Source of the DNA: Mesodorylaimus sp. YZB2_4
Taxonomy: Eukaryota; Nematoda; Enoplea; Dorylaimida; Dorylaimidae
DNA: 64,000 bases
Direction: 5' to 3'
NCBI GenBank assembly: GCA_030248295.1
Contig: JASANH010001452.1
Coordinates: 51,880 to 115,879 of the forward strand
Made by a program: the position numbers and the translations under genes. Below the pieces are notes generated by a model, which worked only from the letters and a program-made list of their open reading frames with translations, was not told the origin of the DNA and did no database searches. This document shows, one piece after another, positions 37,695-61,250 of this stretch (position 1 is its first letter; the number at the start of each line of letters is the position of its first letter).

Positions 37695-39251
37695 TCAGCG
37701 GCGAGTTCGGGTTCGACTGCGCGATGGCCTGCTTGAAGGTGGCCTGCTGGCGGACGGCCTGCTGACGGATGGCATGCTCGAGCCAGGACTCCCTCGTCCA
37801 GCCGATGGGCCATAGCGCGGTTTTGAGTCACGTGGTGGTGGACGACGGCGATCTGGAGCTGCGCGATGCACATGTTTTCGCATTGGACCTGCAGCGAGCC
37901 TCCGCCTCTTGGCATTGACGATGCAGACAACGATGATGACGAAGACGGCCAGCACAGCCAGCGATCCCAGACTGATAACGGCGATCATCCAAGGCTCCAT
38001 GATCTGCTTCGACTCCGTGGTCGGAAACGGCGCCAGAATCCCATCCACAGTGACCGTTTGTCGTTTTGACGGAGTAGTCTTCACTGTGCCAGGAGTCAGA
38101 TGCTGCGTTGTCTTGCTTGTCGGAGATGGCTCGACGTGGGACGCCTTGCTGTGTCGAGTAGATTTGCTTGTGGTCGAGGTGGTCGTTGAAGTCGAAGACG
38201 TACACGGCGGACCTGTGCAAGGACGCACATCGTACGGGCAGTACTTGTAGTCAGGGTAAATTTTTGATCGGATGGTTCCATTCATTTCGACTCCTTTACC
38301 ACCGCACGTGGCATTGCATGGAATCCGCTCCGGGTCGTTTTTCTTTGCCTCGTCGCACTTCTCTTTGCAGTGATTGCTTCCATGCTTGCACTCGAATTTG
38401 ATTTGGGATCCGTTGATGCAGAACTTTTCGAATCCTGGTTGTGATCTCTGAATTGTGTAGTTGACAAAATGCACGCATTCCAGCTCGCTGCTGAATTGGC
38501 AGTCGGTCCATTTCACCTCTAACTCGCACGAGTCGAAAAGTTCGACGATGCTTTTCTTGATCATGTCATACAAAGCGTCTTTCTCACTCGTCTGTTTGCC
38601 CCCAAATCGGACTTGATCAGAGAGTCGACCACTTTTTTCCTTCGTCGATTTTCTGCGCATGAAAGTTACCCAGCCAGTGCTCGACAACTCGCCGGGAAAT
38701 GGATCCATACTATAGCCGGTATGCAACCAAATGTCGACTTGCTCAGCCACTTGATCGAACATTTTGTGCCATGACTCGGTGACGTTCGTGAAATAAAACT
38801 CAAAACAAACGGAGATCCATATGACGAGATCAGGGGCATTGGCACGATTCGAACTCAGCGATTCGAAGATGGGAGCCTGGTGCCGCAGGAAGTCGAGGGA
38901 AGGCTTTGGTTTCAATCTCTCCATTTTTAGGAGTCGTTCTCTCAACGTTGAGGTGAATTCCGCGTCGCTTGGAGAACGAAACTCGAACATTGTCTCGAAT
39001 CGATCCTGCATGTTCGTGAACACCATCACAGCTATTTTCGTATCGAGGTTGATGTTTTGCAGAGCTTTCACGATCATATCCACAGTTTTGTATCGCTCAT
39101 CCAAAGCTACATACCCTAGAGAGCGTTGGGAATGTGCGAACATGGTCGTTTGATCGATCACGATGCCCAAGTCGGCCATTTGCTTGACAGCATCAATGAT
39201 TCGAGACGAACTGATGCGCAAGAGCAGAATCAGCCAGAAGCGAATTTGCAT
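37695..39251 (-). CDS. VWA/TSP1-like type I membrane protein, copy A (intact)
   Basis: One uninterrupted exon encodes 518 aa. Visible order: signal peptide (1-21); a VWA-like region (about 26-240) with GIVIDQTT in place of a canonical DxSxS metal site, IAVMVFT and APDLVIWIS strands; then a block with 12 cysteines (242-350). The last part, CNATCGG...YCPYDVRPCTGPPC (312-350), resembles a thrombospondin type 1 repeat without its tryptophans. A Ser/Thr-rich stalk (351-415), one membrane span (421-446, WMIAVISLGSLAVLAVFVII) and an Arg/Ser/Pro tail (447-518) follow. I do not recognise the family. Domain order suggests a surface receptor or adhesion protein (inference). Paralogues lie at 43314-44869, 45618-46215 and 59688-61250. 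Flanking sequence is also conserved, and a 5' UTR intron is possible (gtgagt near 39347). Confidence 0.85.
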   Translation of the reverse strand: MQIRFWLILLLRISSSRIIDAVKQMADLGIVIDQTTMFAHSQRSLGYVALDERYKTVDMIVKALQNINLDTKIAVMVFTNMQDRFETMFEFRSPSDAEFTSTLRERLLKMERLKPKPSLDFLRHQAPIFESLSSNRANAPDLVIWISVCFEFYFTNVTESWHKMFDQVAEQVDIWLHTGYSMDPFPGELSSTGWVTFMRRKSTKEKSGRLSDQVRFGGKQTSEKDALYDMIKKSIVELFDSCELEVKWTDCQFSSELECVHFVNYTIQRSQPGFEKFCINGSQIKFECKHGSNHCKEKCDEAKKNDPERIPCNATCGGKGVEMNGTIRSKIYPDYKYCPYDVRPCTGPPCTSSTSTTTSTTSKSTRHSKASHVEPSPTSKTTQHLTPGTVKTTPSKRQTVTVDGILAPFPTTESKQIMEPWMIAVISLGSLAVLAVFVIIVVCIVNAKRRRLAAGPMRKHVHRAAPDRRRPPPRDSKPRYGPSAGRGSPGSSMPSVSRPSASRPPSSRPSRSRTRTRR

Positions 39252-39636
39252 CTTCCTTCAGATCTTGAATGAAAGTTGATACTTGAGAGAAGTTGATGGG
39301 TTGATTGGACGAAGTGCTTCACCAAAGAGCGCGCGCACGACCACTCACCAGCAGCGAGCACAGCAAAATGAAGGGCTTCAGATTTTTCTGCGCAGTGCAC
39401 CCCTGCTTCACACTGCCTTCAAAGAACTGATGATTGCATTCCGGTGGGATATTCAAACACATTTAAACAACATTTGCTCGGGTAGAGATTGAAGCACATG
39501 CCTGAAAACATCATGCTTGTGTTTCAATTGAGTGATCTCGGGCTACGATCTGGTGAATTTCCTGTGATATGTACCAAACATGGTGAAAGTAGGAAAGCCC
39601 CTGCCTGGCCCGAACTGATTTTGTTGAACGCTAGGT

Positions 39637-39787
39637 TTATAAACTGCAGTATTGCCCGCAAGAAGTGCATCCCTGCAAAGGTCCGCCGTGTACTGTACGT
39701 CTTTGAATTCTTCCACAACCACCACCACGGCCATAACAAAAACTACCCGGCCAATTGTGGATGGGGTTCGAGATCCGTCAGCGCCTA
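39637..39787 (+). pseudogene. Inverted fragment of a VWA/TSP1-like family gene (fragment E)
   Basis: About 150 bp in opposite orientation matches the TSP1-like/stalk part of copy B: gcccgcaagaagtgcatccc, then 'ggtccgccgtgtac', 'tttgaattcttccacaacca' and 'ccggccaattgtggatgggg'. In the coding frame it contains a stop, so it is a remnant. It ends next to a TGACCT-type hAT terminus at 39793. Confidence 0.8.
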
Positions 39788-39792
39788 AAGAG

Positions 39793-39960
39793 TAGTGTTC
39801 CAATGACTTGGGTTTTTCACTGTCTGACCTGACCCTGACCTTGACCGACCCCTCAAAAAACTTCCTGACCGTGACCTTGACCGAAGCAAAAAACTTTCTG
39901 ACCTGACCGTTGACCTGCAAGGAATTGTAAATTTTCTGGCTCTGACTTTGACATTGATCA
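39793..39960. mobile_element. hAT-like terminus, family 'TGACCT'
   Basis: TAGTGTTCCAATGACTTGGG starts at 39793 and is followed by repeated tgacct/tgaccc/tgaccg words to about 39960. The same end is found inverted at 46757. The opposite end and target duplication of this copy were not found, so the extent is unknown. Confidence 0.55.
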
Positions 39961-41225
39961 GACAAAAAATTTTGCTTATAATCGGCACCAGCAACAAAGC
40001 ATCTCTGTGTTTGCAATTTTACCAAGAAATTTCACTACAGCTGACAATGTTCTGGCATTACGTGAAATTCCACGGGCACTCCAAGAAACTGAATCTTTAT
40101 CAAGCTCAAAAATATATGCAAAGCTGTTTTCACGGCTTTTGGAAAACTAGAGAAGCTGACTTCCATTGAAAATCAAAGATAAATCTCATTCGTTATACGT
40201 CAATTCCTGCTCAAACTGCCTGCTGCATGATCGATTTCTTTCCGCCGTAATCCAAGAAAAAGCGCCTGGCTGGAATTGGCTGGTAAGCCAGAATACCTCG
40301 CTCGAATGACACCAGGTTTGGATATGAACGAGTGGGAAGAGATAGGGATGGCTAGGCCACGGATGAATGGCATTCGCAAGCACAGACGCTGGCACACAGT
40401 AGTCTATGCAGCTGGGCTCGTAGGGGACTGGACGAGTAAGACAACTGCAATAGCACCAGACTCACAATCAGCAGGGGCCAGTTTCAGAGTACGAATTGAG
40501 GGCACTATTAGACAGCAACTTGGGACAACGCTGAGACAATTTAGGACGTGCCACAATAGCTGTTCTAGGGGTGTCTAATCCGTAGATTTAGTCACGTCCA
40601 AGGACAATATTGTTTCACGAAAGGATGACTTGAGACATTTTAGCAGACAACAAAATCTAACGCGGGAAATACATCTGTACGTGTAAGCTGGGCACCCATT
40701 ACTGGTCCAAGTTTGCTGCGCGATTGTATCTCAATATTGTTACTACGTCACGAGGATGCCTTGGCTGAGCCAGGCTGGTCCACATTTTATAAGCCCTGTA
40801 ACCGTGCCTAATTGGGTTTTATTTTATAAGGTTTACCATGGGTTTAACGATTTGGGAATCCACGTTTTATGCACATTATCTGACCATCATGTCAGCAGAC
40901 TGCGCGAAGCACATCATTTGTTTTTTCCAAGTCATAATTTGGAGTCCACAGAGCTTTATGTTTTGTGCGACTGTTTTACGGGATTCTTTCCCATGGGATT
41001 ATGCTTGCTAGTGACTCTAACACGCGTACAAGTTTTAATTAATACTGTGTCCCCCCTCCCCTGTCAAGTGCATGTATTTGCTTGGGTAAGGAAGGAGTAA
41101 AATGATGATGATGGCATTCTGTCGTCCCTTTTTGGCCTCAATGGTTAAAAAGACCGACAGAATTTTAGTTCAGCTGAAAAAGCACCATTGTTACGGCTCG
41201 AGACAGATAACGCAAAATGCCACGA
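39961..41225. other. Stretch without recognised genes
   Basis: I see no family motif or splice-consistent exon here. It may be internal sequence of a diverged transposon between the TGACCT-type end at 39793 and the repeat at 41226-41800. Confidence 0.35.
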
Positions 41226-41800
41226 TCTCAAGACGCCCAAAAAGTTGCTCTACAAAGCAGGTGATAAACTGGCATGAGGTAATTTGAGTGCGCCTCCAAA
41301 TTCGATTTTTGAACTTCTTCGTAGAAAGATCAGCTCAAAATTGCCATAGATCAAGAGACATTGCCCTGCGCCTGACAGCGCTTCTGGGAAATAAAGACAC
41401 CTGGGAGTGTCTTAAGACATGGTCGAGGTCGCCCTAAACTTACTGTATGACTGCCTGGTGTCCTCGGGTGGGTCACCAAGCTGATTGTGAAATGACTTAG
41501 GACTGTCCCAGAATTTAGGACAAGCCTTGAGATTTAGAATTGTAAAACTGCCCTCAGATCTCCACGCAGGAAGGCGGGAGCTTGAAATGTTTTTTACCTA
41601 AATTTCACTAAATTCACTTTCTTTCGCTGTCAGAATACTCTGACCGGGTGCAAGAAATTCTGACCTGACCCTGACCTTGACCAGACCTTAAAAAATTTTC
41701 TGACCTTGACCCTGACTTTGACCAAGGGTCGGTCAATCGGGGTTTTGACAGAATTCTAACCTTGACCTTGAGGTCATTTCTAAAACTACTATGTACAGAG
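41226..41800 (-). repeat. Dispersed repeat with TGACCT-type end, copy 1 (inverse of 47055-47445)
   Basis: The segment shares 'agacgcccaaaaagttgctct', 'gatcagctcaaaattgccat', 'ctgcgcctgacagcgc', 'gtcagaatactctgaccggg' and 'tcaatcggggttttgacaga' in inverse order with 47055-47445. It ends in gacct-type words and a terminus near 'catttctaaaacta'. It probably derives from the same hAT-like family. Confidence 0.65.
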
Positions 41801-43313
41801 TCGAAGGAGACCATGGAACCCATGGCTTAGGCTGACTCGAGTAGGTGAATGGCTCATATGGTGAATTTTTTTGGGAGTGAGGATTTTCTATTTTTAGTAA
41901 TTCGGATAAATATGTGCCGGAAAGCTTTTTATTGTAAAAACATAAACAATGTGTGCGCCAGAAGCTTTTTATATGCCGCTTATATATGCTTGAGCCAGTG
42001 CACATAAACTGAAGTAACTCATGCTCCTTGTTCTCCCAATAAACCACTTACGGCCTCATTATAGTCGGTCACTTTCCTTTAGTGACTCGCGCCTGCACGC
42101 AAATCACGCGGATTCGCTACTTTTAGGCAATTTGTTCTCAAAATTCATAGCGATAACCCTAGTCGATGTCAGCAACTAGTTTGAGGAATCAAGTGTGCTC
42201 TATTAAGCAGATATATTTTCGAGGCGTGATTTTTCGTTTTCAGTTTTTACCAAAGTTTTTTCATGATAAAAAGAGAAAAATCTATCAAAAGGTTGATAAT
42301 TGCAGTAAAAGCAAAGCAAAGACATCCAGTCGATAGAGCATGTTTTTCTCCATCAAAATGTCGCTGACATGAACCCTCGTTTTCGCTGAAAATTGTGAGA
42401 AAAATTGGCCGAAAGCAATGATGGCGCAAAACGCATTTCGACAGGCGAATGTGCACTCAACTAGAATCAGCCCGTTTTTTTGCGTACTATGTTACGGATG
42501 ACATACAGTACGTGTCTTCTTAATCGTACAAATCTTTAAATTCCCGCTTCTTTGTGTCGTGTTTTTTCAGGTTCGTTGATGACAGGATGGCGGGCGAGAG
42601 ACAGGAAATAAATGTTTGACTTGGTCCGCTATCACTCAAGAAGAACGAGCCGAAAAATATTCTGCTGTGAGAAACCCTTAGAAAAACTCTCTTCTCGAGC
42701 ATCGAACACAGATTAAGCCTAAGTCAACCTGGGCAACAAGGAGTCAACCTGAACTTTCTTGCCGCTGCAGTCGTTAGCCTGTACTGTGATCCTCAGGTAC
42801 ACAGGAACTGGCGGTAGATTCAAAAGTAAAATGCTGGAAATTCACGTTATCACGCGTCACGCGCACGTGAAGAGAAGCAAAGGTGATGGGTGATGGATCT
42901 TGGATGCGGCTGGCCAGTTCAGGATTTGGTGATCAATTCATGAACAGCTTGAGCTTAAGCTTGATGCTTGCTTAAAATGGTTCGATCGAGAAAAGCGTAA
43001 TTGGGCAAACAAGGGCAGACATTGACCATTGCCCCATGTTTTAGGTTGTAAATCAAGCGCACATCGGCACAAGATGAAATACTATGTCCATGGAGGAATA
43101 TGCAGTCAGGGATGGCCCTTGGCAGTGCCAGGTGATTGAAGTTGGTGGTGGGGCAGCAGTGAAGAGTGCACATTTCCTGCGTTTTTTCCAGAGTTCAGTC
43201 CATGCTTATCAATTTGCCAGAAGCAGATCCGTGATTACTCATTAGATTCATTAGCGTCACGCATTCTAGCACTAGCACACTGCACCAGATCATCTCAGCG
43301 TCATTCTTGCACT
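41801..43313. other. Stretch without recognised genes
   Basis: I find no convincing exon on either strand. The last 60 bp resemble the 3' flank of the family genes (gcgtcacgcattctagcact). Confidence 0.4.
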
Positions 43314-44869
43314 TCAGCGGCGCATTCGGTGTCGCCTATTTGATGGCCTCCTTGAAGCTCGCCCGCTTGAGGATCTCCTGTGTGCAGCTGGCCTGCTTGT
43401 GGAGGGCCTCCTTGGACTTTGCCTGTTGGTTGCTGGCCTACCCGTAGAAGGCCTGCTGAAGGACAGCCTGCTTGAAGCTGGCATGCTGGTGGATGTCATG
43501 TTGGTGGATAGCCTGCTCGAGTCAGGATCCCCTCGTCCCATCGATCGGCCGTAGCGTGGCTTGGAGTCACGCGGTGGTGGACGATGGCGATCTGGAGTTG
43601 CACGATGCACATGTTTTCGATTTAGACTTGAAGCACGCGTACGCCTCCTGGCATTGACGATGCAGACAACGATGATGACAAAGACGGTCAGCACAGCCAG
43701 CGAACCCAGACTGATGATGGCAATCATCAACGGCTCCATGGTCTCCTTCGACTCTGTAGGCACTGACTGATCTCGAACCCCATCCACAATTGGCCGGGTA
43801 GTTTTCATTATGGTCCTGGTGGTCGTTGTGGAAGAATTCAAAGACGTACACGGCGGACCTTTGCAGGGATGCATTTCTTGCGGGCAATGCTTGAAGTCAG
43901 GGTAAAGTTTTGCCTTGGCGGTTCCAAGAAATTTGACCCCTTCACCACCGCACGTAGCATTGCATGGAGTACAATCCGGTTCAGTCTTTTTTGCATTATC
44001 GCACATTTGTTGGCAGTAATTCTTTTCATGGTTGCACTCATATTTGATTTGCGATCCGTATATGCAAAACTTTTCGAATCCAGGATGTGACTTTTGAATT
44101 GTGTAGTTGACAAAGTTCACGCATTCAAGCTCGCTGTTGAATCGGCAATTGGTCGATGTAGCCGTTGACGTGCACGAGTCGAGAAGTTCGACGATGCTTC
44201 CCTTCATCAGAGTATAGATCTGATCCGAGTCGCTGAAACTGCCCGAGACTCTGATGTGACCAGAGACTCGATTATCTTTATCTTTTGTCGATTTTCTATA
44301 CATGAAAAGCTCCATCTGAACCCCATGGAACCCAATAAAAGGATTGGTGTGCAGCCGAATGTCGATCTGGTTTGCCACTCGATTAAACATTTCGTACCAT
44401 GGTTTATAGAATGTTCTGGGCGCATATTCGTTACTCACCGAGATCCACAAGATCAAGTCGGGAGCATCGGCACGATTCGAACTCAGCGATTCGAAGATAG
44501 GACTGTGGTGTTCCAGAAAGTCGAGGGTATTTTGAGTCTTTCGTTTCAATCGCTTGAATTTGGCGAGTCGTTGAATTCCGAGTCGCTTGGAGAACGAAAT
44601 TCGAAGATCGTCTCAAATTTTATCTGATCGTCCGTGAACGCCATCACAGCTATTTTCGTATTATAGTCGATGTCTCGAAGAACTTGCGCGATTTTAGCAA
44701 TTATTATATATCGCATTTCAATGATCGTTTGGTTAATTACATATTCGCGGTTTTCTAACAAGGTCGTTTGATCGATCACGACGCCCACATCGGCCGATTG
44801 CTTGGAGGCATTGACGATTTGCGATAAGATTATGCACAGCACCAACACCAACCAGCAGCGTTTTTGCAT
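43314..44869 (-). pseudogene. VWA/TSP1-like membrane protein, copy B, broken by a small deletion
   Basis: The copy starts MQKRCWLVLVLCIILSQIVN at 44869 and runs through the same order as copy A: VWA-like region (VVIDQTT, IAVMAFT, APDLILWIS), Cys-rich block, CNATCGGEG...CPQEMHPCKGPPC, short stalk, membrane span and Arg/Ser-rich tail. Near 44549 the frame is lost just after EFRSPSDSEFN. Relative to copy D about 16 nt are missing (five codons plus one base). The downstream frame remains open for over 400 codons to TGA. It is either a recent pseudogene or spliced or sequenced around the lesion. The tail is longer in Ser-Arg-Pro repeats than in A. Confidence 0.85.
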
Positions 44870-44962
44870 CTTTTTGGTTGAGACGAATCGGTTCACTAAA
44901 GAGCGCAGCGCACGACCACTCATCAACAACATCACAGCGAAATAAAGGGCTTCGGGGTTTTG

Positions 44963-45187
44963 ACGCGGTACTAACGAGCAGGATGTGTTTACTATCCCCG
45001 CACGCTCTAGAAGACACGGCTAACGGAGACACGCATTTTTCAGTCAGACGAATCTGCAAACAAGGAAGCGCCAGACTAAGCCTAAGCCTAGGATTAGATA
45101 GAAAGTGATAAGATACGCAGAAATACACAAAGAAACGAATAGAGCAAGTTTCAGGTTGGAAACACATCCTGCTCGTTAGTGCCGAGT
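44963..45187. mobile_element. 225-bp TIR element (MITE) in the 5' flank of copy B, 9-bp target duplication
   Basis: The ends ACGCGGTACTAACGAGCAGG and CCTGCTCGTTAGTGCCGAGT are inverted repeats (about 28 bp, 3 differences) that run into atgtgttt/aaacacat. It is flanked by a perfect 9-bp direct repeat, GGGGTTTTG (44954-44962 and 45188-45196). A 9-bp duplication suggests Mutator-like rather than hAT. The flanks continue the 5' flank shared with copies A and D, so the insertion postdates the gene duplication. Confidence 0.85.
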
Positions 45188-45617
45188 GGGGTTTTGGTGC
45201 ACAGCGCCGGAACTTTCACACTTTACGCCTTTTTTTATTTCACACTGCTTTCGTAACTGCCGATTGCATCCAGGCGGGAAATTAAAAAATTATCCGGACA
45301 CACGTTTTCCCCCGCGGCCTAGAATTATCCAGTACATACAAAAACAACTACGAGATCGATCCTGATCTCTCAGTCTGGCATTCCTAACTTGTGAGATTTT
45401 TTGTGCTGGAATTCGGGTACTTGTAAAATAAGCACTTGTGGCGCTGGTAACACTTCCAAGTGCCTCGGTGAAACTGGGCCCAGGTGCTCATAATTGGAGA
45501 CATGGAACTGGGGCAACGCCATAAATGGGAGCCGATCCAAACCCGTACTCACATCACTACACTCGTCGGCGTCATACATTCTAGCACTGAGCACGCTGCA
45601 TCAGATCACCCTGCAGT

Positions 45618-46215
45618 TCAGCGGCGAGTTCGAAGTCGACTGTTTGATGGCCTCTCTAAAGCTGGCCTGCTGGCGGACGGCCTGCTGACGGATGGTCTGC
45701 TCGACCCAGGATCACCTCGTCCCATCGATCGGCCATAGCGTGGCTCAGAGTCACGCGGCGATGGACGATGGCGTTGTGGGGTACCACGATGCATGTGTTT
45801 CCGCATGAGATCTGGAGTACGCCTACGCTTCTTGGCAATGACGCAAACAGTGACAATAATATGGACTAATAGCACAGCCAGCGATCCCAGACTGATGACA
45901 GCCATTATCAACATGGCTTGCTTCATCCCAGTGGTCGTTGACGGATCTCGAACCTCATCCGCAGTCACCGTTTGTCGTTCTATGGCCGAAGTCTTCAGCC
46001 AAGAGTCGGACGCTGCGTCTTCTTGCTTGTTGAAGATGGCGCGATGCGGGGCTCCTTGGTTTGTCGACTCGTGCGGTGGTGACGTGGCATTGCATGGAGT
46101 CCACATTGGGTCGATTCGTTTTGCATCGTCACACTCTCGCTGGCAGTAATCTTTGCCATGTTTGCACTCGTATTTGATCTGGGATCCACTCATGCAGGAC
46201 TTCTCGAGTCCATCG
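45618..46215 (-). pseudogene. VWA/TSP1-like family, copy C, truncated remnant
   Basis: Only the 3' part survives. It starts at the SGSQIKYECKHGKDYC block, the signal peptide and whole VWA-like part are absent, and homology stops at about 46215. The TSP1-like stretch after PCNAT is deleted and the stalk is frameshifted. The frame then recovers through the membrane span (MAVISLGSLAVLLVHIIVTV) and the Arg/Ser/Pro tail to TGA. The 3' flank (cattctagcactgagcacgc) is shared with copies A and D. Confidence 0.85.
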
Positions 46216-46596
46216 CGGGGTTTACAAAAATTTGCTTCGAAGGAACTTTGATTTTTAACCTCTTCTCTCTAGCATAGTGACTGCACCAATGTCAAGATCA
46301 GTCAAAACTTTAAAAGAAAAAACTTCAAATCCTCAGTTAAGGTCAGCTCACATAGGAACATCGACAACCGTCAAGTGGATCTTTGCAAAACCAAAAATTG
46401 TAATATGTTCCTGGATGAAAAAAAGCTCTGTGCAAAATTTCACAGACATCTGGCCAAGTGTTTAGCTCAGTGCCTAAAGTCCTAAGAAATTTTTGAATTC
46501 TAAATTTTTTGGGTTTTCAGGAAAAGTCCTCTCTGCCTCTTTGGGCCCTTACTGTAGTCTGCACACGAGTGTACAGTAAGCCACTTTCAACTGGTC

Positions 46597-46757
46597 TAGT
46601 GTTAGAAATGACCTCAAGGTCAAAGGTCATAATTCTGACAAAACCCCGATTGACCGACCCTTGGCCAAAGTCAGGGTCAAGGTCAGAAAATTTTTTTGGG
46701 TCCGGTCAATGTCAAGGTCAGGTCAGACAGCGAAAAACCCAGGTCATTGGGACACTA
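46597..46757. mobile_element. hAT-like MITE, family 'TGACCT', complete short copy
   Basis: The 161-bp element starts TAGTGTTAGAAATGACCT and ends AGGTCATTGGGACACTA. It is flanked by an 8-bp duplication with one mismatch (AACTGGTC 46589-46596; AATTGGTC 46758-46765). The interior is almost entirely aggtca/gggtca words in direct and inverse orientation. Confidence 0.85.
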
Positions 46758-46784
46758 AATTGGTCTATACAAGCATATCGTACC

Positions 46785-46925
46785 GGGCTCGTGGCCTGGT
46801 GGGTTAGGCGTCCACCTTTCACGCCAAGCGTGCAGTTGCAGGCGAACGTTCGACTCGCGGCCTGGTAAATCAATTCTTGTACAATATGTCCTTTCACCCT
46901 CGTTCTTGGTAATGTGGTATAACAG
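46785..46925 (+). repeat. tRNA-derived SINE, family A-related, copy 3
   Basis: The head 'gggctcgtggcctggtgggtt' with T arm 'gaacgttcgactcgcggcc' is followed by 'tgtacaatatgtcctttcac', then 'cctcgttcttggtaatg' and 'cggtataaca'-like words. The segment 52020-52125 repeats the T arm and body. Confidence 0.65.
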
Positions 46926-47054
46926 GAGGAGCAGGAACCATTCTAGGCTAACTTTGGCAAGGAATAAGCGTGCGTCCACCTCTGAGGCGTCTACACATCA
47001 CATCAGTCAGTCAAAAGGAACCAAGCAAAAACATACAGTATGCCTCACTAGTGT

Positions 47055-49515: not shown

Positions 49516-49954
49516 GAGCCCACTACGGTTGGTAAAAATACTCGATTTGAATGCGTATGCGTATACGCAAAGTCTCTTGAATGCGTATGCGTATTGCGTA
49601 ATATGCAAATTGCGTACTCCCCAAAGTATGCATACAAGTTTGCGTATTGCGTATTTTCCCTACTATAGCTAATGATACATGTAGTCATAAACTGCAACTA
49701 GCTGTATGTCCATAACTGAAATGTCAACCACCACAGCAGTACAACAAACATAAGACATCGCAGAACTTGTCGCTGCCGCTTATGGTCAGTTCAAAAAACG
49801 TCTTCGGGGAGAAATTCCTGTTAGGTTCGATCATAGATTATTTCTCAGGGCCACATCCTGGTTCAGCCAGCAACCCGTTTAGCCAGAATCCCTTTCTGCC
49901 ATTGCATTAGGTGGGTGGTGTTCTCTGTGCATGCCCGCACCCGCACTCGTGACG

Positions 49955-50642
49955 TAGCGTTCGTTCGGGATCCCGGTCCCGATCCCGATCCCGGTCGGGA
50001 TTGCCCCTCCCGAACCCGATCCCGATCCCGATAAAAAGTGTTCGGGATTGGGGACTGAATATTGTGGTGATAGAATGTTTTTATTGCAACAGGGAATGGG
50101 GCTGGTGTATGGGAAACGAGCTGTAGGGGTGATAATGGCATGATCGGATGAAACTACTCCCATAAAATGCACAAGTCCTGCTTTTTCTGATGTACGATTT
50201 GCGCCCAGTTGGATACAGTAACAGCCCGCATTTGCCATCATTAGATGGTGGGCCTGCTGCAGAAGCTGGCGACATTCTGCTTGACACTGACTCAGATGGT
50301 CATGGCCATCAAAATATTTCAGAAGGGGAAATATAGAGACCTTGGCGGATGATCGAATTGATAGAGGAGAAGGAGGGGATTTGTTTGCTGATTTGTAACT
50401 GATTCTTCGCTTGCCTGATTTTGAATGCAATGATAAATACTGCACTAAAAATTATCCAAGGAAAGGGAATCTGTGGCTTTTAATTTGCTGGCTACTCAGG
50501 GTGGGTTGTAGGTCATCTATAGCCAATGAAAAGCGCTCTCTTCACAAAATCCCGATCCTGTCCCGATCCCGATCCCGGTCGGGATTGAGCGAGTCCCGAT
50601 CCCGATACCGATCCCGAAAATAATGATCCCGAATGAACGCTA
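49955..50642. mobile_element. Non-autonomous hAT-like element, family 'GATCCC', copy 2 (nested)
   Basis: The ends TAGCGTTCGTTCGGGATC and GATCCCGAATGAACGCTA are flanked by a perfect 8-bp duplication TCGTGACG (49947-49954, 50643-50650). It is nearly identical to 1495-2188 over its 688 bp. Differences are a few substitutions and one fewer 6-bp GATCCC unit. Confidence 0.92.
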
Positions 50643-52019: not shown

Positions 52020-52125
52020 CTTATTCAGGCGAGTGTTCGACTCGCGGGCCGGTAAATCATTTCGTGTAAAATGTGTCCCTTCATCCTCGAGTGCGCATAA
52101 GCGTTTGGTGATGCGGTAAAACATG
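52020..52125 (+). repeat. tRNA-derived SINE fragment, 5'-truncated
   Basis: T arm 'gcgagtgttcgactcgcggg' plus the body 'aaaatgtgtcccttcatcct', 'cgagtgcgcataagcg' and 'gatgcggtaaaacatg' match the second half of 46785-46925. Confidence 0.6.
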
Positions 52126-52854
52126 AACATGAACATTCACTATCGCAAGATGAAAGACTTTCTGACATGAGCCAAATGCTTTAGCGCTATAAGCCTGGAT
52201 AATGTCTATTTCGAGCAATGTTTTGGTTTTCTAGTTCCTTTGGAAATAGACGTCTCAATTCAAACTTAAAAACTTGAAGCTGACAACAACCTGACAATGA
52301 GGAATGGGTCTACCAGAAATGAGCTGGGGCCTCCCCCCCCCCCCCTGAACCTAGATTCGTGACTCTGCTACCAAACGTGCTTTTCATTTGAGCGCTAGTA
52401 TAGCTTGTATGCAGGAGGTCAGCAACGACTACTGCAGATAGAACAAGCTAGTTTGTGTGCAAGCAACCAGTTTCACAATTAGATGAGACGTGTCTGATGG
52501 TAGATCGCAGGCCACACAAGAAAGTCCTATCCTACATAAAAAGGACACTGCTGTCCTAATCTAAGAACCCGCTGACCTGAGTGAAAGTGACTTGGATCCT
52601 GCAAAGTCAAGGTTGCTGCACTGGTGCGTATGTCATATACAAGTACGGACCCTTTTTTTCCTCGACCCCCTCTTAGAAGCTCAGAAATACTCGTTCATCT
52701 TTTTTTGTACCTTGTTTCAAAGTTTTCTAACTGAAGATGCTCTGTACTGCAGTTTTATTTCCCAGAAATTTTCACTGGAAAACAGCTTTTATAGCATCAT
52801 TTTATCTATGTATTTTAAAATTTTTGTTGTCTCTGCTTTGATAGGAGCTGTCAT

Positions 52855-53013
52855 GTCATACTTTATCCATAGCCAAGCACCATATGGCGCACTTGAGGGC
52901 TAAGGAACACATAATTGACAATAATTTTGTACCCAGGCGGGAGTCGAACCCTCCCCTGTACTGTACGTGCGCATCCAGGATGAGGGGCAGACGCCTTAAT
53001 CCGCTAGGCTGCG
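52855..53013 (-). repeat. tRNA-derived SINE, family A, copy 4
   Basis: Minus-strand head 'cgcagcctagcggattaagg' with T arm 'gggttcgactcccgcctggg', and the same body as 37147-37312 ('aaggaacacataattgacaa', 'ctttatccatagccaagca' on the + strand). Confidence 0.75.
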
Positions 53014-53601
53014 ACCTCGGTCGGTCAGCTTAGACAGATAAGCAAGAAGCCAGTCAGTCGTCGTGTGACACCCAACACTTGTCTTGACGTCCTCCACGGA
53101 TGGCGCCCTAGCGGCTGTTAGACATAAACCAGGCTCTTTTTTGTAGGGAGCAAACACTTTCGAATCTCAAAAACGCTTAAAGGACAACAATATGGCACGC
53201 TTGGCATGGCGTAAAAACACCAGTGTTTTTAGGATGTTCAGGTTCAAAACGATCTGTGCGTAAACTAGTATCGCCATGAAATTCAGCTCAACTTCTGAAC
53301 AGCGCCCATGATTTTTGCGGCTCATTACAGCTCGCGCTGCAAAGTACTAGTTACTGTATGCGAGGCCAAGCCTCTCTCCCTCGGTCACCCATCGCTCGCT
53401 CGCTCGCCTAGCCCGCTCGCGAGACCACGCCTATCGCTCGCTCATGGTTCCTTGTCCTACTCGATCGAGATCAGTTTGACTAGCGATAGGCAATTGAACT
53501 CATTGTTTCCGCAGCATCGATCTTTATCACCTTTTAGACGCGGACACTAAAAATAAACGACAACATAATATCTATGTCAGAGCAATGAGTTTTAATCTTA
53601 C

Positions 53602-53694
53602 CCTTTTACATACGCATTTTTCGATCCTTTCACTCTCAGGAACGGCCGCCCCATTCACTTGATAATCTATTTCGTACTCATCCGCTTCCGACTC
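53602..53694 (-). CDS. Candidate 93-nt exon of unknown gene, inside hAT-like element
   Basis: On the minus strand an acceptor (taacctgttcag) precedes an open 31-codon stretch containing ESEADEYEIDYQVNG and ending VCKR, then a GTAAGA donor. Length is a multiple of three (phase 0-0 cassette). I cannot assign a family. It may be a captured host exon or a chance arrangement. A second minus-strand open piece with an ATG (about 53950-53827, containing FPLRRVHLDEKEKIFLPAEC) lies upstream, but the two do not join in a matching phase by the obvious splice sites. Confidence 0.3.
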
Positions 53695-55535
53695 CTGAAC
53701 AGGTTACATAATTATGACACTTCAAGTCACCATGTCAAGTGAACTTTACAAAAGCATTGGAAGCAGAGACAGGAAGTTCCAACACGTCATTTCGAGCGAC
53801 AAAATTATCAGACTGACTTTATGGCCTACTTGACTTTCTTCTCGTCGTCTTGGTCTCCGAAGATTTGACATTCTGCTGGCAAAAATATCTTTTCCTTCTC
53901 ATCCAAATGAACTCTTCTCAAAGGAAATCTGCGATCAACCTTATCATGCATCCCCCCGCACAGCAGTCTCCGTTATCTGCCGCCAAAATCAAATCTTGCG
54001 TTCACTGTTGCAACATGCGCCACTGTTGTCCTTTAAGTATGCATTTCTTTTTATAAGCTTATCTTGGTTGTGAAAAAATGTAATGTATAACTGTTTTCTT
54101 TGAGAATATACACGCCCTTCACGTGTCGCGTGTATTTCCAAAGGAAACAGATAGGATATGAATATCCCAAAAGATATGGATATGATTTCGATATCGGTAT
54201 CGATTAGATATACAGTAGTCATAACTAGCCTCAAAATAGCAGACATCAGAACTGTTTCGCTGAAAACAATCACAAAATGCATAAGATTTAAATTTACAGC
54301 GCTGTCATTGATATGAATTTTAAAAAATTAAACAAGAACGAATACCCAGACCCGTACCCATGCTCGCCGGGTACGGGTGGGTACTCATGCAGGACTCTGG
54401 GTTGGCCTCTTACCTCACTGATCGTACGCATTTCAATTCTTCTGGCAGTGCCTCCTTTCGAACTATGCATACACCGTCATGTGGGCCTCAAGGTTCTGTT
54501 CTTAGACTGATTTTATGTATTGCATGCATTGATTCTTTTTGTGTGATTTCCACAATCTATTGCCTGGCCTTTTGCTACAAGCGTATGCTAACGACATCGT
54601 TGTTGTTTCTCCTGCGTGCCCGCTGTCGGACTTCAGAAGTTTGCTCCAACGGGCAGTCTCATTCACTGCCGAAAAGGTGTCGGATTTGGGGCTTGAATTC
54701 AATTCCGCAAAGACTCAAGGTTGCATTTTTCGACTTGATCCGAGACCTTGCAGGGGTATCCCGTCTGTAGTGTTAAGCGGCATTGTAGTTACATTTTTTG
54801 ATGTGGTCTTCTCAGAGTTAAATTGTCATCTAATATGCGTTTTGCGGTGCATTGTCACGACATTGCCAATTGTGATCGCAGGTATGTTGGTGCGTTTCGT
54901 CAAAACTTAGGAAACTTCGCTGGTAATGTCCTCAAAACTGTTCACGTTCAGATTATGTTTGTTGTGCTTGGTCGCCAGTTCATGATTACTTGATCGATGA
55001 TCTCGAGAACGCTCAGAAGTTTGCTGCTCCGTCGATCTGATTGGAGCGAGTCCTATGATGATGCCAGAGCCTAACCGAAATTGTGCGCATTGGAAGATCG
55101 TCGAAACCAGCTAAGGCTACCTTGATTTTACAAGTAGTATCATAGTCGAAGCTCTGATTCGGAAGCTCATTTTATTTATATTACTGACTCTGTGAGTCGT
55201 TTTAGCCAGCGTTTAGAAGTTTTAAGAAATCATTTTATTTCTGTACCAAAGATTTATAAAAGTGCTTTTGCTCAGTCTTTTGAGTATTCGGTTATGAATA
55301 AGTTTTGGAATACTGATGTGATTCTATCTGATATTGCCGTGGCTTCATGTGACTCTTCAGGGCCCCGATGCATAAACGTCATGCCAAGTCAACTTTTTAT
55401 GCCGACTTTCATGCCGACTTCTTTCATGGCAACTCGTTTGTCTATGCTATGTTTTATGTATACGTAACTGCGCGGCGCGTCAAGTCGGCATTGCCCATGC
55501 CAATAGGGGTGCATCAAGTCGGCATGAACTACCGG

Positions 55536-56666
55536 TAGACCCCGGATCGGGTCAGGTACTTTCGGGTCGGGACGGGTCACTTTTTTGAAAGATCGGGTCA
55601 AAGGGGTCAAAAATACAGAAATTTTGCAAGTTACTACTATTAGCAACTTGAGAAACCTTCTCATAGTTGTTCGACTCCAGGATTTGCAGTATATGCTTCA
55701 TGCATGCATGCATGAAGTCTTTTATTCCACGTTCTCATTCTGCGTCACTTCCAGGAATGTCAGACGAATTGTAAGCTTTGAGAACGACCAATTTTTCGGA
55801 GTAATTTCTGCAAAGGGGAGGGTCCATATGTGAGAGTTCTCATAAACATTCTTGTCCACTCTGATAAATGGGTGGGACTAGCCATACTTAAAAAGGAATC
55901 GATAACTTTTAGCAGGTCGTAGGAGGTATCTACAATCACATTTGATTCCTGAATATGACATAACTTCCTGAGTATACCTGGCTGGAAGAGCAATATACAG
56001 TAGTCTATACCCAAACACCAAATATGGACCAATAATAGCCCCCTTGACCACCATCCATGTTACCATTGCAGAACACTTTGCTGTGTTCGAAAGTCCCTCA
56101 CATCCCTCCATCAGTAGTGAAGGTTCTGACAGGAACTAGTGTTCAGCACAATATGACTTTGTAAGCAATATCTTTTGTGAAGACTAGATGCAACTCTAGC
56201 CTGGGGTTCATATATATTTAGGTATTTCTTTGTTTAACCAAGGATAAGCTGTCTCAGACTCCGAAAGTCATGACAGAGTTGTCTCTATTTTTCACGCCTA
56301 TCATTCGGATTGGTTAAATCTTGTCTCAAGTGGACAGACCCTAGTCGCTTTTAGATCTAAGGTTTTTAAAAAATTATTTGACTACTATTGTAGGAAATAT
56401 GAAGGAACGTTATTGCATTTACTAAGGATAACTAGGGAATAACAAAAGATGGAGATTCGCGTGCGTGAGATTTCTCCATCTCATATTTTCTCGCAGTCCT
56501 CTTTACACCAACGCCACCACCTTCTGAGCATTTGTGAATGGTTTTTATCGCGAGGAACTTCAACTACTTATACCGAATTCGGGTCAACCCGACCCGAAAT
56601 TTCGGGTCACGGACTTTCGGGTCGGGTCGGGTCGGGCGGGTTGAACCCGACCTGATTCGGTGTCTA
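55536..56666. mobile_element. hAT-like element, family 'CGGGTC'
   Basis: The 1131-bp element has ends TAGACCCCGGATCGGGTCAG and, inverted, TAGACACCGAATCAGGTCGG. It is flanked by a perfect 8-bp duplication ACTACCGG (55528-55535 and 56667-56674). Subterminal cgggtc/gacccg words are repeated near both ends (55547-55612; 56581-56650). No transposase was recognised; minus-strand open stretches around 55.76-56.11 kb are unassigned. Confidence 0.85.
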
Positions 56667-56946
56667 ACTACCGGCAGACCCGTTGTGACGTGGCAGATGT
56701 CAAGCGAAGGTGATTTTGAAGATTGAATCCGAAAAACGTCGCTTTATGGAGTGCATTTTTGCTACGAATGCCGCCGCAAAAAGGGGAAATCGGTGATAAA
56801 ATAGTTTCCAGTTCGGCGATAAAATAGTTTCGGCCAATTTTCCATTGCCACTGTGGAGAATAGGAAATTAGTTCAGCATTCATTATCCAATACCAAAAGC
56901 TAATTATCGCCCGACTGATCAACGAGAAAAAGAACGATCCGTTTAG

Positions 56947-58968
56947 CCAGATCGATGCATCAAACGAATCACCCTGGGTGGCAAGAGAAAGAAGTGGTCG
57001 GAAATCATCGACATTTGCATGAACGAGTTGGATTTCGATGCTGGTAAGTGTCTTCGCAAAATGGTGTTGAAGAGTGTTGTTTATCAGGACTCAATTGCAT
57101 AGTTTTAGTACCACAAAATAGTGTTATTTGATTTTGCGAATTTAAGAGTAACTATCACATGCATACGATCTCTTAATGACAAATGCTAATGCCTGCTAAA
57201 ATCTGTAGAATGCACATGGACAGAAGACAGGAAGACTGCTTCACACTTTCTGGCTGAATTTTGTAGAGAAATGCGGGTAACAGCAATTTAGTCTTCATCA
57301 TGCTTTTCCTCTGTTTCAAGAACCTCAGGATTTCCTCTGCCCAGTGTTTCAGTGGAGCCCGGAGAAGGGGACACCAAGGAAAATCAGGAAGAGCAGTTAT
57401 CGATTAGCATCGCCTTACTGGGCACCGTCACCACAAAAATTGCCCCTGGCTCGCCGATCGCCATCCCCTATCTGGGCGTGTTCATCGATTCAGTCGCCCA
57501 AGCCTCGCAGTGGTCGTTTTGCAAGAGCAGGTGAGCTGTATGTGTTTAATGCATCCTCTTGACCGCGGCTGTTCTTTTCTTGTTTCCTCAAGGCTCATTT
57601 ATTCTGGCCACCGAGTTCTCTGTGACAGAGCGGCGCACTGCTTGGGATGGTCCCAGATTTTCATGTTCGCGGATTACTGTACTCTGTCCCAGACTTCACT
57701 GGACCCTGAAAACTCGGGGACCAGTATAAATGCACCAAAATCAGGAAAATGAGTATAAAAGCGACCAGGCCTAGGCGCCCGTACTGAGGCCCCGATCGGT
57801 GTCCCTGCGCGCTCTGTCCCTGCGTTTTTGCACAAAAAGTCAAAGTTTGTGCAAAAACGCAGGGACTCGTTTTTATCGATTGTAAAAATCGACGATCGTC
57901 TCTAAAATTTTAAACAAGGTGTTAACCGATGCAGTTTTTTTAGCTGAATCCGATAATGAAGTCAAAATTTAGGTTTGAGGGCGATTTTTACCTGTATTTC
58001 CTCATGTTCTGAGCCTAGTTTTTCGCTTTCAAAGAGCTCACTCTATGATCCTCACATCATTGGCTATGTGTGATTTATTGACCTTATTGTTGAATTCGAG
58101 TATTCGATTGATCATTGTGACCATTCGATCAGTCAATATGATCGATCAGATCATTTATGTCAACCGATCGATTGATTGATTGATCGATTGATTGATCATT
58201 CAATCTGTTGTTCGATTCACTTAATGATATGACTCATCGATCGATCCATCAGTCTATCATATAGATCAGATCAGCTCATCGTATCGATCAGACCAGCTGA
58301 TCATATCAATCACCCGATCATATCAATCAGCGGATCGATCAGCCAATCATCCGGCGAGTTATCGGGCAGAAATCGATCTGTCATTCTTATACGATTCTTT
58401 CATGATTTTTACTCGTATCGGCCGTATCAATATTTTCAAACTACCCCTCTCTTATCGATCAAAAGCACTACAGAAAACCAATTGTGCGTGTGGTTATCAC
58501 ATCGTTCTGTTCTCGTATATTCTAATCATATAGGATCTCTGTCCTGCAAGAAGCCCCCGTTTCCGACTGGTTTGCGCCGCGCCTCGCCTCTTTGTGCAAA
58601 GAGCAGAAAATGCTTTTCTCTCTTTTTTAGCAGCGCCTCTCTGGGACAGCGCCTCTCTAGACGCAGGGACAGAGTCCCAGTTTCTGAAAATGCAGGAGAG
58701 TGAGCTCTGGATCAGGGACTCTTGAGGCAGTATAAACGCCCTCTCGGTGACAGAGTGGCAGAGAACTCTGTCCTGAGCGCGCAGTCACAGAGAGCTCGGT
58801 GGCCTGTATAAATGAGCCTTCATGACTGAAGGTCCTGCGTCGTTTCCATTCCCTGATTTCCATATATTTTTCTCCAGCTTCTACATAATAGTGGTGGAGA
58901 TATTGTACGATCCAGCCAGAAGCGCAAAACTCGACGAATTAGAAGAAGAGAAACGAAAGCAGGCCTAG
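56947..58968 (+). CDS. Unrecognised small gene, three 3' exons
   Basis: Exons 56947-57043, 57353-57530 and 58878-58968 join with matching phases (1, then 2), all GT-AG, to a TAG stop. They give 121 residues. The 5' exon(s) and start were not found; the frame is closed just upstream of an acceptor (gatccgtttag). The peptide reads KRKKWSEIIDICMNELDFDA, then an acidic EPGEGDTKENQEEQ, a mildly hydrophobic LSISIALLGTVTTKIAPGSP with IPYLGVFIDSVAQA, a short hydrophobic FYIIVVEILY and a charged C terminus LDELEEEKRKQA. I do not recognise it. IPYLGVF faintly recalls a RasGEF motif, but the rest does not support that. The large intron (57531-58877) holds a TIR element and GATC repeats. Confidence 0.55.
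57816..57866. repeat. Perfect inverted repeat (21-bp arms, 9-nt spacer)
   Basis: The arm 57816-57836 (GTCCCTGCGTTTTTGCACAA plus A) is exactly mirrored at 57846-57866, with AAGTCAAAG between. It lies inside the 57590-58820 element. Confidence 0.95.
58080..58400. repeat. GATCGATC-rich degenerate repeat
   Basis: Runs of gatcgattgattgatcgatt and 'atcagatcagctgatcatat' type words dominate the block. It resembles, without being clearly homologous to, the blocks at 21250-22925 and 30040-31015. Confidence 0.7.
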
Positions 58969-59687
58969 TTGAAAAACGATATCTTGTATTTGCAGGAATA
59001 ATGTATGACTTCGAAAAACAAAAAGCTTGTGCTGGTGATTGATGCTTTAGAAATGTTGAGTGAATTCTCATTAGTGGAATAGGAAAATCAAAGGGATTCG
59101 AGTGACCATATAATGGCTCTGCTCTGTGCGAATAAGATAGCAGCAAGTAACTGGAAACAGCATCCCATTTTAAGCGAGATAATTAGCAACCTGTGCAAAA
59201 AAAATTTTTTAGACTTTTAGTGTACTCGCTATTAGGAACACAGCCCCACTTTCCACTTTTACAGTGATAGATTGTGTTGCCATGATTATAAGGTCATATT
59301 GTAGGTCGATCTCAAAATCTCTATCCACCGCTGGTATTCTCTACTGTCGGAGGAAAACCCGCGAGTCCGGGCGCCAACGTCGGAGCTTTCCTTTCAGGGC
59401 GAATCTCTGATTTTTTGGGAGCAAAAAACGGAAACAGTCATCACAGTGATTTTCATTCTTGCTGCTTCTGAATTGACTTTTACCGCTTGCATGATCTCCG
59501 TCATTTGCTGCAGTCCAGAGAACACCATGACTGTCACCTGAGTGCTAACGAGGGAAGAAATTAAACTACGACAACGCCACGAAAAGAAGCCGATTAATGA
59601 TCACACTCACATCACAAAATTCCTGAGCGTCCTACATTCTAGCAATGAGCACGCTGCATCAGATCACATGATCGTCATCATCTCAGC
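58969..59687. other. Intergenic stretch before copy D
   Basis: No exon is recognised. The last 60 bp (gtcctacattctagcaatgagcacgctgcatcagatcac) are the 3' flank conserved among the VWA/TSP1-like family genes. Confidence 0.45.
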
Positions 59688-61250
59688 TCAGCGGCGAGTT
59701 CGGGTTCGACTGCGCGATGGCCTGCTTGAAGGTGGCCTGCTGGCGGATGGCCTGCTCGACCCAGGATCACCTCGTCCCATCGATCGGCCATGGCGCGGCT
59801 TGGAGTCACGCGGCGATGGACGGTGGCGTTGTGGGGTGTCACGATGCGCGTACCTGCGCGCGGGGTCTGCAGCACGCTTTCGTTTGTTGGCGTTGATGAT
59901 GCAGACGATGATGATGATGATGATGGCCAGCACAGCCAGCGATCCCAGACCGATGACGGCCATCATCCATGGCTCCATGGCTTGCTTCGGCCCAGTGGTC
60001 GTTGACTGATCTCGAACCTCATCCACAGTCACCGTTTGCCGTTCTGTGGCCGAAGTCTGGACAGCGCCTGGAGTCGGAGTCTGCGTCTTCTTGCTCGTTG
60101 GAGACGGCGCAATGCGGGGCTCCTTGGTTTGTTGGGTAGATTTGGTCGCGGTTGTGGTCGTGGTGATCGCCATGGTGGTAATCGAACTCGTGCACGGCGG
60201 GCCTGTGCAAGGATGCACTTCGAACGGGCAGTACTTGTAGTCGGCGTAAATTTTCGATCGGATTGTTCCGAACTGTTTGACTCCTTCACCACCGCACGTG
60301 GCATTGCACAGGGTCCACATTGGATCGATTCGTTTAGCCTCGTCACACTTTCCTTGACAGTGATCCTTGCCGTGGTAGCACTCGTATTTGATCTGGGATC
60401 CACTCATGCAGAACTTTTCGAATCCTCGATGTGAACTCTGAATCGAGTAGTTGACGAAATGCACGCATTCCAACTCGCTGTTGTATTGGCAGTTGCTTGA
60501 TTCCGCCGCCGATGTGCACGAGGTGAGCAGTTCGACGATGCTTCCGTTAAGCATATAATGGATAACATCTGGGGATCTGGGGACTAGGCCTGAAAGAGGG
60601 ACAACCTCAAAGACACGCCCACTTTCTTCTTTCGTCGATTTCCTGTGCATGAGGAGCCAATCAGCATCAAATATTCTGTGGCTAGAGAAATGTGTGTATC
60701 GGCCAGCGTGCAACCAAATGTCGATTCGCTCAGCCGCTGCATTGAAAATTGCGCGCCATGGATCGACGAATTTGTCAAAGAGAAATTCTCGACCTGCGGA
60801 GAACCAAATGACCAGATCGGGAGCCTCGACACGATTCCCGGGAAGTCCGCTGAAGATGGGCGGGTGTGATGGCACATTTTCGAGAGGACGCGTCGCATAA
60901 TTCTCTCGTCGCAAGTCCTTCATTTGGGCGAGTCGATCCAACAACGCTGAGTTGAATTCTGGGTCATTCGGAGAATGGAATTCGAAGATTTGTTCGAAGA
61001 GAAGCTTTTTACCAGTATACGCCATCACAGCTACTTTTGTGTCGAAGTCGATATTTTGCAGAACTTGCAAGATTTTAGTGATGGCAGTATTTCGTATTTT
61101 AGCGATAGTTTCGGCTATCGTGAATTCATGTTGCTCGAGAAGAATTGTTTGATCGATCACAATGCCCACATCGGCCAATTTTTTCGAAGCATCGACGATT
61201 TGCGACAAGCTCATGCACAAGAGCAGAATCAGCCAGCAGCGTGTTTGCAT
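59688..61250 (-). CDS. VWA/TSP1-like type I membrane protein, copy D (intact)
   Basis: A single exon of 520 aa. The frame is open upstream, but the start at 61250 (MQTRCWLILLLCMSLSQIVD) is chosen because it aligns with the signal peptides of copies A and B. Order is as in copy A: VWA-like region (VGIVIDQT, VAVMAYT, APDLVIWFS), a Cys-rich block (SSNCQYNSELECVHFVNY, HCQGKCDEAKRIDP), CNATCGGEG...CPFEVHPCTGPPC, a Thr-rich stalk, one span (MMAVIGLGSLAVLAIIIIII) and an Arg/Ser/Pro tail. It is closest to remnant C in the stalk and tail. Upstream, 'gaccactcaccatcaccgagcac' is shared with copies A and B and includes a GTGAGT on the minus strand that could be a 5' UTR donor. Function unknown; surface location inferred. 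Confidence 0.85.
   Translation of the reverse strand: MQTRCWLILLLCMSLSQIVDASKKLADVGIVIDQTILLEQHEFTIAETIAKIRNTAITKILQVLQNIDFDTKVAVMAYTGKKLLFEQIFEFHSPNDPEFNSALLDRLAQMKDLRRENYATRPLENVPSHPPIFSGLPGNRVEAPDLVIWFSAGREFLFDKFVDPWRAIFNAAAERIDIWLHAGRYTHFSSHRIFDADWLLMHRKSTKEESGRVFEVVPLSGLVPRSPDVIHYMLNGSIVELLTSCTSAAESSNCQYNSELECVHFVNYSIQSSHRGFEKFCMSGSQIKYECYHGKDHCQGKCDEAKRIDPMWTLCNATCGGEGVKQFGTIRSKIYADYKYCPFEVHPCTGPPCTSSITTMAITTTTTATKSTQQTKEPRIAPSPTSKKTQTPTPGAVQTSATERQTVTVDEVRDQSTTTGPKQAMEPWMMAVIGLGSLAVLAIIIIIIVCIINANKRKRAADPARRYAHRDTPQRHRPSPRDSKPRHGRSMGRGDPGSSRPSASRPPSSRPSRSRTRTRR

What the first reader, a model, noticed from the sequence alone, without database searches (positions are those of the whole stretch)
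37695..61250. Undescribed-looking cluster of single-exon VWA/TSP1-like membrane protein genes
Two intact intronless genes (518 and 520 aa), one recently broken copy, one truncated copy and one inverted fragment share a signal peptide, a VWA-like fold with a degenerate metal site (IDQT in place of DxSxS), a 12-cysteine block ending in a TSP1-like CNATCGG...C..PC, a Ser/Thr stalk, one membrane span and an Arg/Ser/Pro-rich cytoplasmic tail. I do not know an animal family with this layout; VWA plus TSP1 plus a span is best known from apicomplexan TRAP/MIC2 adhesins, which is an analogy only. Birth-and-death evolution of intronless surface proteins suggests recognition, immunity or gamete roles (inference).
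Basis: partly seen in the sequence, partly recalled or inferred. Interest (0 to 1): 0.8.

Follow-up and report, generated by a model that had tools for sequence, protein, structure and literature searches.

The report
Large intronless VWA/TSP1-like receptor family
The gene cluster is real: it is one patch of a large, fast-changing family of apparently intron-free cell-surface proteins in one animal genome, built like adhesion receptors, with a probable but unproven role in adhesion or recognition.

Summary
In detail: two intact single-exon genes (518, 520 aa), one frame-broken copy, one truncated copy, one inverted fragment. They belong to something much larger. The 518-aa protein matches 55 places in its own genome. 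45 of 108 VWA places there lie in open frames of at least 380 aa (hand count); 38 were fetched. Of 39 family frames kept, 33 show a signal-like start and a span. Pfam finds no VWA in the window proteins, but disjoint profiles link their subfamily to clear VWA members (14 against 20 sequences, P=1.4e-13, probability 98, reversed control 7). TSP1 is only suggested (TSP_1 in 4 of 15 at E up to 0.05, best just below cut-off). The metal site is lost in A and D; 15 of 38 members keep DxSxS. dN/dS of A against D is 0.51 (0.41-0.64): constraint. All 39 tails tested are basic, so it is not a TRAP-family protein. Eight literature searches found no description. Most likely: lineage-expanded adhesion or recognition receptors. 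Expression, ligand and species are not shown.

The parts
37695..39251 (-). Copy A, intact single-exon gene, 518 aa: signal-like start, VWA-like about 23-241, 12-Cys block 242-350, Ser/Thr stalk, span about 421-446, basic tail
39647..39793 (+). Inverted fragment of a family copy (end of the Cys block and following sequence)
   Evidence: 16-aa match, 69% to A and 81% to D; inverted repeat I4, 92%
43314..44390 (-). Copy B, C-terminal piece (358 aa), in another frame than its N-terminal piece
44546..44869 (-). Copy B, N-terminal piece (signal-like start and beginning of the VWA-like domain)
45618..46211 (-). Copy C, truncated: about residues 273-518, part of the Cys block missing
59688..61250 (-). 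Copy D, intact single-exon gene, 520 aa
60519..61184 (-). D residues 23-244: VWA-derived domain without a metal site
   Evidence: (VWA parts alone P=5.7e-7, prob 92; reversed control P=0.03)
60192..60518 (-). D residues 245-353: 12-Cys block with family-wide framework; residues about 312-353 align with the TSP1-like part of L044
59976..60188 (-). D Ser/Thr/Pro stalk
   Evidence: sequence
59886..59975 (-). D membrane span and its borders
   Evidence: hydropathy
59688..59885 (-). D basic Arg/Ser/Pro tail ending RR

Best explanation
The window genes are divergent, metal-site-less members of a large, lineage-expanded family of apparently intronless type I membrane receptors: signal peptide, VWA head, Cys-rich block ending in a TSP1-like module, Ser/Thr stalk, one span, basic cytoplasmic tail. 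Shown: the family, its layout, its arrays, purifying constraint, repeated metal-site loss, copies in various stages of decay. Inferred: the VWA head binds a protein or matrix ligand, through a metal ion in MIDAS-bearing paralogs and without one in the window subfamily; the Cys block and stalk hold the head off the membrane; the basic tail, often ending in two basic residues, links to cytoplasmic partners or trafficking. Multi-copy birth and decay with heads changing faster than the Cys block suggests adhesion or recognition receptors.
For: VWA: hhalign of 14 subfamily against 20 VWA-family sequences, none shared, P=1.4e-13, prob 98, reversed control prob 7; VWA parts alone P=5.7e-7, prob 92. 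A genome search with A reaches VWA-bearing members on C5 at E 3.4e-5 and 1.8e-4, over Cys block to span. Six Cys columns at least 90% conserved in 40 sequences; eight Cys invariant in 15. Pfam VWA in 37 of 40, a set chosen mostly by PF00092 hits. Layout: signal-like start and span in 33 of 39 kept frames. Copy number: 55 places for A, 13 with stops inside, 19 distinct clean frames of at least 450 aa, A and D included, by hand count. Constraint: A-D dN/dS 0.51; ten pairs 0.25-0.53 overall. VWA dN/dS above Cys dN/dS in 7 of 9 measurable pairs. Basic tails 39 of 39.
Against: No transcript, localisation or ligand data. VWA dN/dS is below 1 in all ten pairs (0.20-0.60), so positive selection is not shown; span plus tail exceeds the VWA part in 6 of 8 measurable pairs, so divergence is not centred on the head. 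Cys parts alone match weakly (P=2.3e-4, prob 44). With A, B and D alone, three of six family groups gave no match and one only prob 22. AlphaFold models are poor (mean pLDDT 36 and 46) and the rows shown by the fold searches hold no VWA. A and D have no Pfam VWA or TSP1 hit of their own.
Confidence: 0.55

Rival explanations
1. Matrix-attachment receptors: the family ties cells to cuticle or extracellular matrix, and its size reflects tissue or stage specialisation, not recognition.
For: VWA domains of collagen VI, a mussel byssus matrix protein and integrins are the best PDB profile matches of the ectodomain set A3. The genome also holds an EGF/VWA gene that looks like the MUA-3/MUP-4 matrix receptors (L001: EGF over cut-off, EGF_Mua-3 only at E 0.0055, below its cut-off; likeness otherwise recalled). 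VWA heads stay under constraint in all ten pairs.
Against: Many broken copies (13 of 55 places with stops) and repeated metal-site loss are unusual for conserved structural parts.
Confidence: 0.25
2. The window array is a decaying graveyard of a retrocopy-like expansion with little present function.
For: B, C and the fragment are dead; 13 of 55 genome places carry stops.
Against: A, D and the C986 and C235 copies are open over 513-523 codons. A-D dN/dS 0.51, upper bound 0.64, Cys block 0.31.
Confidence: 0.1
3. A TRAP/MIC2-family adhesin acquired from, or contaminating from, an apicomplexan.
For: Same order of domains; MIC2 VWA is among the PDB profile matches of A3.
Against: Net-basic tails in 39 of 39 and in 15 of 15 of A5; Trp in the last 15 residues in 1 of 39 (L019) and in L049, none in A, B or D; the TRAP hallmark is an acidic tail with subterminal Trp (PMC9019593 passages). 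The window contig carries an exon of phenylalanyl-tRNA synthetase beta whose best PDB matches are 8s8b_C and 3l4g_B (the latter human, recalled), and the genome a COX1 frame open in the invertebrate mitochondrial code.
Confidence: 0.02
4. Gamete-recognition proteins specifically.
For: Single-exon, multi-copy, changing surface genes fit this role (general knowledge, no call).
Against: No expression data; nothing here separates it from immunity or self-recognition.
Confidence: 0.15

Closest known systems
TRAP/MIC2 family of apicomplexans
   Same: Signal peptide, VWA, TSP1-type module, one span; MIC2 VWA among the profile matches of A3
   Different: Tails basic, no subterminal Trp in A, B, D; A and D lack MIDAS, whereas the review states that all VWA domains of TRAP and TRP proteins identified so far have it (PMC9019593 passages)
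ANTXR1/ANTXR2 (TEM8/CMG2) receptors
   Same: VWA head on a receptor; VWA of the paralog L007 matches ANTXR2 at about 6e-10
   Different: Recalled, not tested: Ig-like domain after the VWA and a long conserved tail; here a Cys block and a short basic tail
MUA-3/MUP-4 EGF/VWA matrix receptors of nematodes (recalled)
   Same: VWA in a cell-matrix receptor; a gene that looks of this type lies in the same genome (L001)
   Different: EGF repeats; A, B and D have no EGF match
Coral coadhesin and hemicentin type VWA plus TSP1 proteins (recalled)
   Same: Combine VWA and TSP1
   Different: Long proteins with more domains (recalled; not compared here)

Membership tests
VWA domain superfamily | Sequence homology to VWA domains | tested here: met
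   disjoint profiles P=1.4e-13, VWA parts alone P=5.7e-7, reversed controls not significant. Single-sequence Pfam gives no hit for A, B, D; the subfamily profile matches PDB VWA chains only at E 0.49-0.65
VWA domain superfamily | Rossmann-like VWA fold by structure | tested here: inconclusive
MIDAS-bearing I/A domains | DxSxS with distal TDG motif | tested here: not met
   A and D have IDQT and no TDG; in the wider family 15 of 38 have DxSxS and 13 of 38 TDG
TSP1 repeat | Profile match in the Cys block | tested here: inconclusive
   TSP_1 at E up to 0.05 in 4 of the 15 sequences of A5 (14 subfamily plus L044). L044 is best: 6.6e-4, 20.3 bits against cut-off 21.6. A and D have none alone; they align with L044 over that part
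TRAP family | Signal peptide, VWA and/or TSR, span near the C-terminus | tested here: met
   the TSR only below threshold
TRAP family | Acidic cytoplasmic tail | tested here: not met
   Net charge positive in 39 of 39 tails (3 of 42 members had no span and were not scored); A +20, D +18
TRAP family | Subterminal tryptophan | tested here: not met
   None in A, B or D; Trp in the last 15 residues in L019 (1 of 39) and L049 (1 of 15)
MUA-3/MUP-4 | EGF repeats | tested here: not met
   No EGF match in A, D or B at E up to 10
ANTXR | Ig-like domain and conserved tail after the VWA | not tested
   Recalled features; no ANTXR sequence was compared with the window proteins

The most novel reading that the evidence does not exclude
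This lineage evolved its own large, polymorphic recognition system from intronless VWA/TSP1-like receptors, convergent in layout on apicomplexan TRAP adhesins. MIDAS-bearing members act as metal-dependent binders, and MIDAS-dead clades, the window genes among them, as metal-independent partners or decoys; patchy gene conversion (seen between L011 and L012) reshuffles heads over shared membrane parts.
Probability: 0.15. Interest if true: 0.8.

Novelty: new variant of a known kind. Interest (0 to 1): 0.55.

Why it matters
A large single-exon receptor family with a TRAP-like layout in an animal would be an independent case of VWA plus TSP1-like surface receptors expanding by birth and death. MIDAS-alive and MIDAS-dead clades of one family in one genome make the role of the metal site in VWA adhesion testable by comparison. 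Pfam misses the VWA domain of the window clade, so such families are probably undercounted.

Tried and rejected
Pfam, PDB and protein-database searches with the 518-aa protein gave no family. The protein search scores only candidates sharing short words, and low-complexity words may have filled the list, so the absence is weak evidence. L007 alone found none at E up to 1e-5. The 21-sequence ectodomain profile found four proteins with VWA domains and, by eye, without this layout.

AlphaFold with 4-row alignments gave mean pLDDT 36 and 46. Foldseek and VIA rows shown are Rossmann-like ATPases, CTP synthase and others at low score: inconclusive, not evidence against the fold. The best PDB match of the subfamily profile (7.1e-4) is to a span region, taken as composition; TMEM154, PARM and RIFIN Pfam matches lie below cut-off in stalk and span.

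Sphaeroforma arctica as the source was considered and is not supported: 142,721,209 bp, accessions 1-733 (PMC6855841, passages) against 145,146,385 bases in 1067 contigs. Tardigrade was considered. A COX1 frame open in the invertebrate code and the EGF/VWA gene L001 suggest from memory an ecdysozoan, perhaps a nematode. The species is not established.

The hhalign of A5 against A3 (P=6.3e-20) had L044 on both sides and is not used; one search repeats it without overlap. Conservation after the stop codon is shared by the dead copies B and C, so it is not used as evidence of function. I first took heads to diverge while tails stay alike in general; one search bears this out for L011/L012 and, by dS, for A-D only, and L014/L040 shows the reverse.

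Papers: of ten searches, eight aimed at the family and two at the organism; listings and abstract starts seen. Passages read of PMC6855841 and PMC9019593 only. No description of this family was seen there.
Full report
Observation. ORF listing gives 37695-39251(-) of 518 aa and 59688-61250(-) of 520 aa. tblastn of both against the window finds three further traces: copy B in two frames (43314-44390 and 44546-44869), truncated copy C (45618-46211) and a short fragment on the other strand starting at 39647 (extended to 39793 by inverted repeat I4). In 30 shuffles of the 29-kb region in two-base blocks the longest ORF was 224 aa. The 12-Cys block is exact (A 242-350, D 245-353), followed by one strong span and a tail with 17-18 Arg and 2-4 acidic residues. 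A, B, C and D share about 60-65 nt after the stop, and A, B and D a block before the ATG that holds GTGAGT in A and D. An intron in the 5' untranslated part cannot be excluded; the coding part is single-exon.

Constraint. Nei-Gojobori dN/dS of A against D is 0.51 over 512 codons, bootstrap 0.41-0.64; VWA-like part 0.59, Cys block 0.31, tail 0.37. Ten pairs, window pair included, have 0.25-0.53 overall. The VWA part is 0.20-0.60, above the Cys part in 7 of 9 measurable pairs (L014/L040 and L018/L023 go the other way). Span plus tail is above the VWA part in 6 of 8 measurable pairs, once at 1.09 over 15 codons. L011/L012 have dS 0 in span plus tail against 0.50 in the VWA part, which suggests gene conversion there; A-D show a milder contrast (0.36 against 0.83), L014/L040 the reverse (0.24 against 0.08). 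This is purifying constraint with patchy conversion, not proof of positive selection.

Not five genes but a family. PF00092 matches 108 places at E up to 1e-3, a lower bound; 45 lie in stop-to-stop frames of at least 380 aa (hand count), and 38 of these 45 were fetched. One search lists 46 distinct ORFs of at least 300 aa; seven were set aside (six unrelated or antisense, among them those on C87 and C2, and one near-duplicate fragment), leaving 39. By hydropathy 33 of 39 have a signal-like start and a span; L012-8989, L013-3117, L014-103, L021, L028 and L032 do not, some being truncated. The 518-aa protein matches 55 places on C285, C235, C986, C920, C159, C130, C125, C1, C237, C62 and C5; 13 have stops inside, and 19 distinct frames of at least 450 aa are clean, A and D included (hand counts). 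The contig holds more copies before the window and ends with it.

Is it really VWA? Pfam sees none in A, B or D. With A, B and D alone, hhalign gave P=1.4e-7, prob 94 with a 19-member VWA cluster (reversed control 9.6) and P=1.1e-8 with L044, prob 22 with the L016 group, and nothing with three other groups. With the larger subfamily and no shared sequence, 14 against 20: P=1.4e-13, prob 98 (reversed 7.4); VWA parts alone P=5.7e-7, prob 92 (reversed P=0.03); Cys parts alone P=2.3e-4, prob 44 (reversed P=0.07). The Cys framework is shared: six columns at least 90% conserved in 40 sequences, eight invariant in 15. Structure models are too poor to decide.

TSP1. L044 has VWA over the cut-off (25.9 against 23.8 bits) and TSP_1 just below it (20.3 against 21.6), and aligns with the CNATCGG region of D. 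In the subfamily the motif reads CNATCGG or CSVTCGRG in several members. TSP_1 appears in 4 of 15 sequences of A5, L044 among those scanned. The A5 profile matches circumsporozoite-protein and semaphorin-5A TSP1 chains on the same columns at E 0.01-0.33. TSP1-derived is the best reading, not proven for A and D.

Metal site. DxSxS in 15 of 38, TDG in 13 of 38, at least 7 changes of the DxSxS state on the tree; the set was picked by PF00092, so loss is under-sampled. A and D have lost both.

Tail. 39 of 39 tails are net positive; Trp in the last 15 residues in L019 and, in A5, L049. 23 of 51 tails end in two basic residues, 2.6 expected from the tails' own make-up; 2 of 51 fit KKXX or KXKXX. Related sequences count many times there; on a tree of 48 the state changes at least 13 times. 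Its meaning is unknown.

Place of the window genes. On the tree of 48 they fall in a 14-row clade (SH-aLRT 98) apart from 34 other rows that hold the MIDAS-bearing members and L044; several long branches make deep placements unsure.

Organism. An exon of FARSB in the window matches PDB FARSB chains at about 1e-34. An EGF/VWA gene resembling MUA-3/MUP-4 (likeness recalled) and a COX1 frame open in the invertebrate code suggest an ecdysozoan, perhaps a nematode. The species is not established.

Function. Type I layout, a ligand-binding kind of head, stalk, multi-copy birth and decay and metal-site turnover make adhesion or recognition the best reading; matrix attachment is the main rival. Neither is shown. 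TRAP-family membership fails on its two hallmarks. No description was seen in eight searches of the open-licence library aimed at the family.

Noticed in passing
59691-59696 and 37698-37703 (-), and other family C-termini: 23 of 51 tails end in two basic residues (RR or KK) against 2.6 expected; the state changes at least 13 times on a tree of 48.
   Followed up: partly
L057 and 14 other places: 15 COX1-like places, all with stops under the standard code; the best lies on a contig of at least 254 kb and opens in the invertebrate mitochondrial code: nuclear copies of mitochondrial DNA or an assembly join.
   Followed up: partly
G000:C285:1506-3057 and G000:C920:5053-6604: Two stretches with identical match scores: a recent duplication or a redundant contig.
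   Followed up: no
20535-26965 (+): Phenylalanyl-tRNA synthetase beta in several exons by eye (one exon confirmed), with a tandem array at about 23600-25600 in between.
   Followed up: partly
2255-2758 and 3578-3928 (+): Looks like exons of a short-chain dehydrogenase/reductase (by eye).
   Followed up: no
1494-1997 and 49879-50241 (-): Two copies of a repeat that read almost the same ORF: a dispersed element.
   Followed up: no
37186-37316 and 52886-53021: Repeat pair, 80-88% identical, resembling a tRNA-derived SINE by eye; ARAGORN finds no tRNA.
   Followed up: no
33991-34188: 22-base tandem repeat.
   Followed up: no
39252-39420 and 61251-61420 (upstream of A and D): Conserved block holding GTGAGT before the ATG: possible 5' untranslated exon and donor site.
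   Followed up: partly
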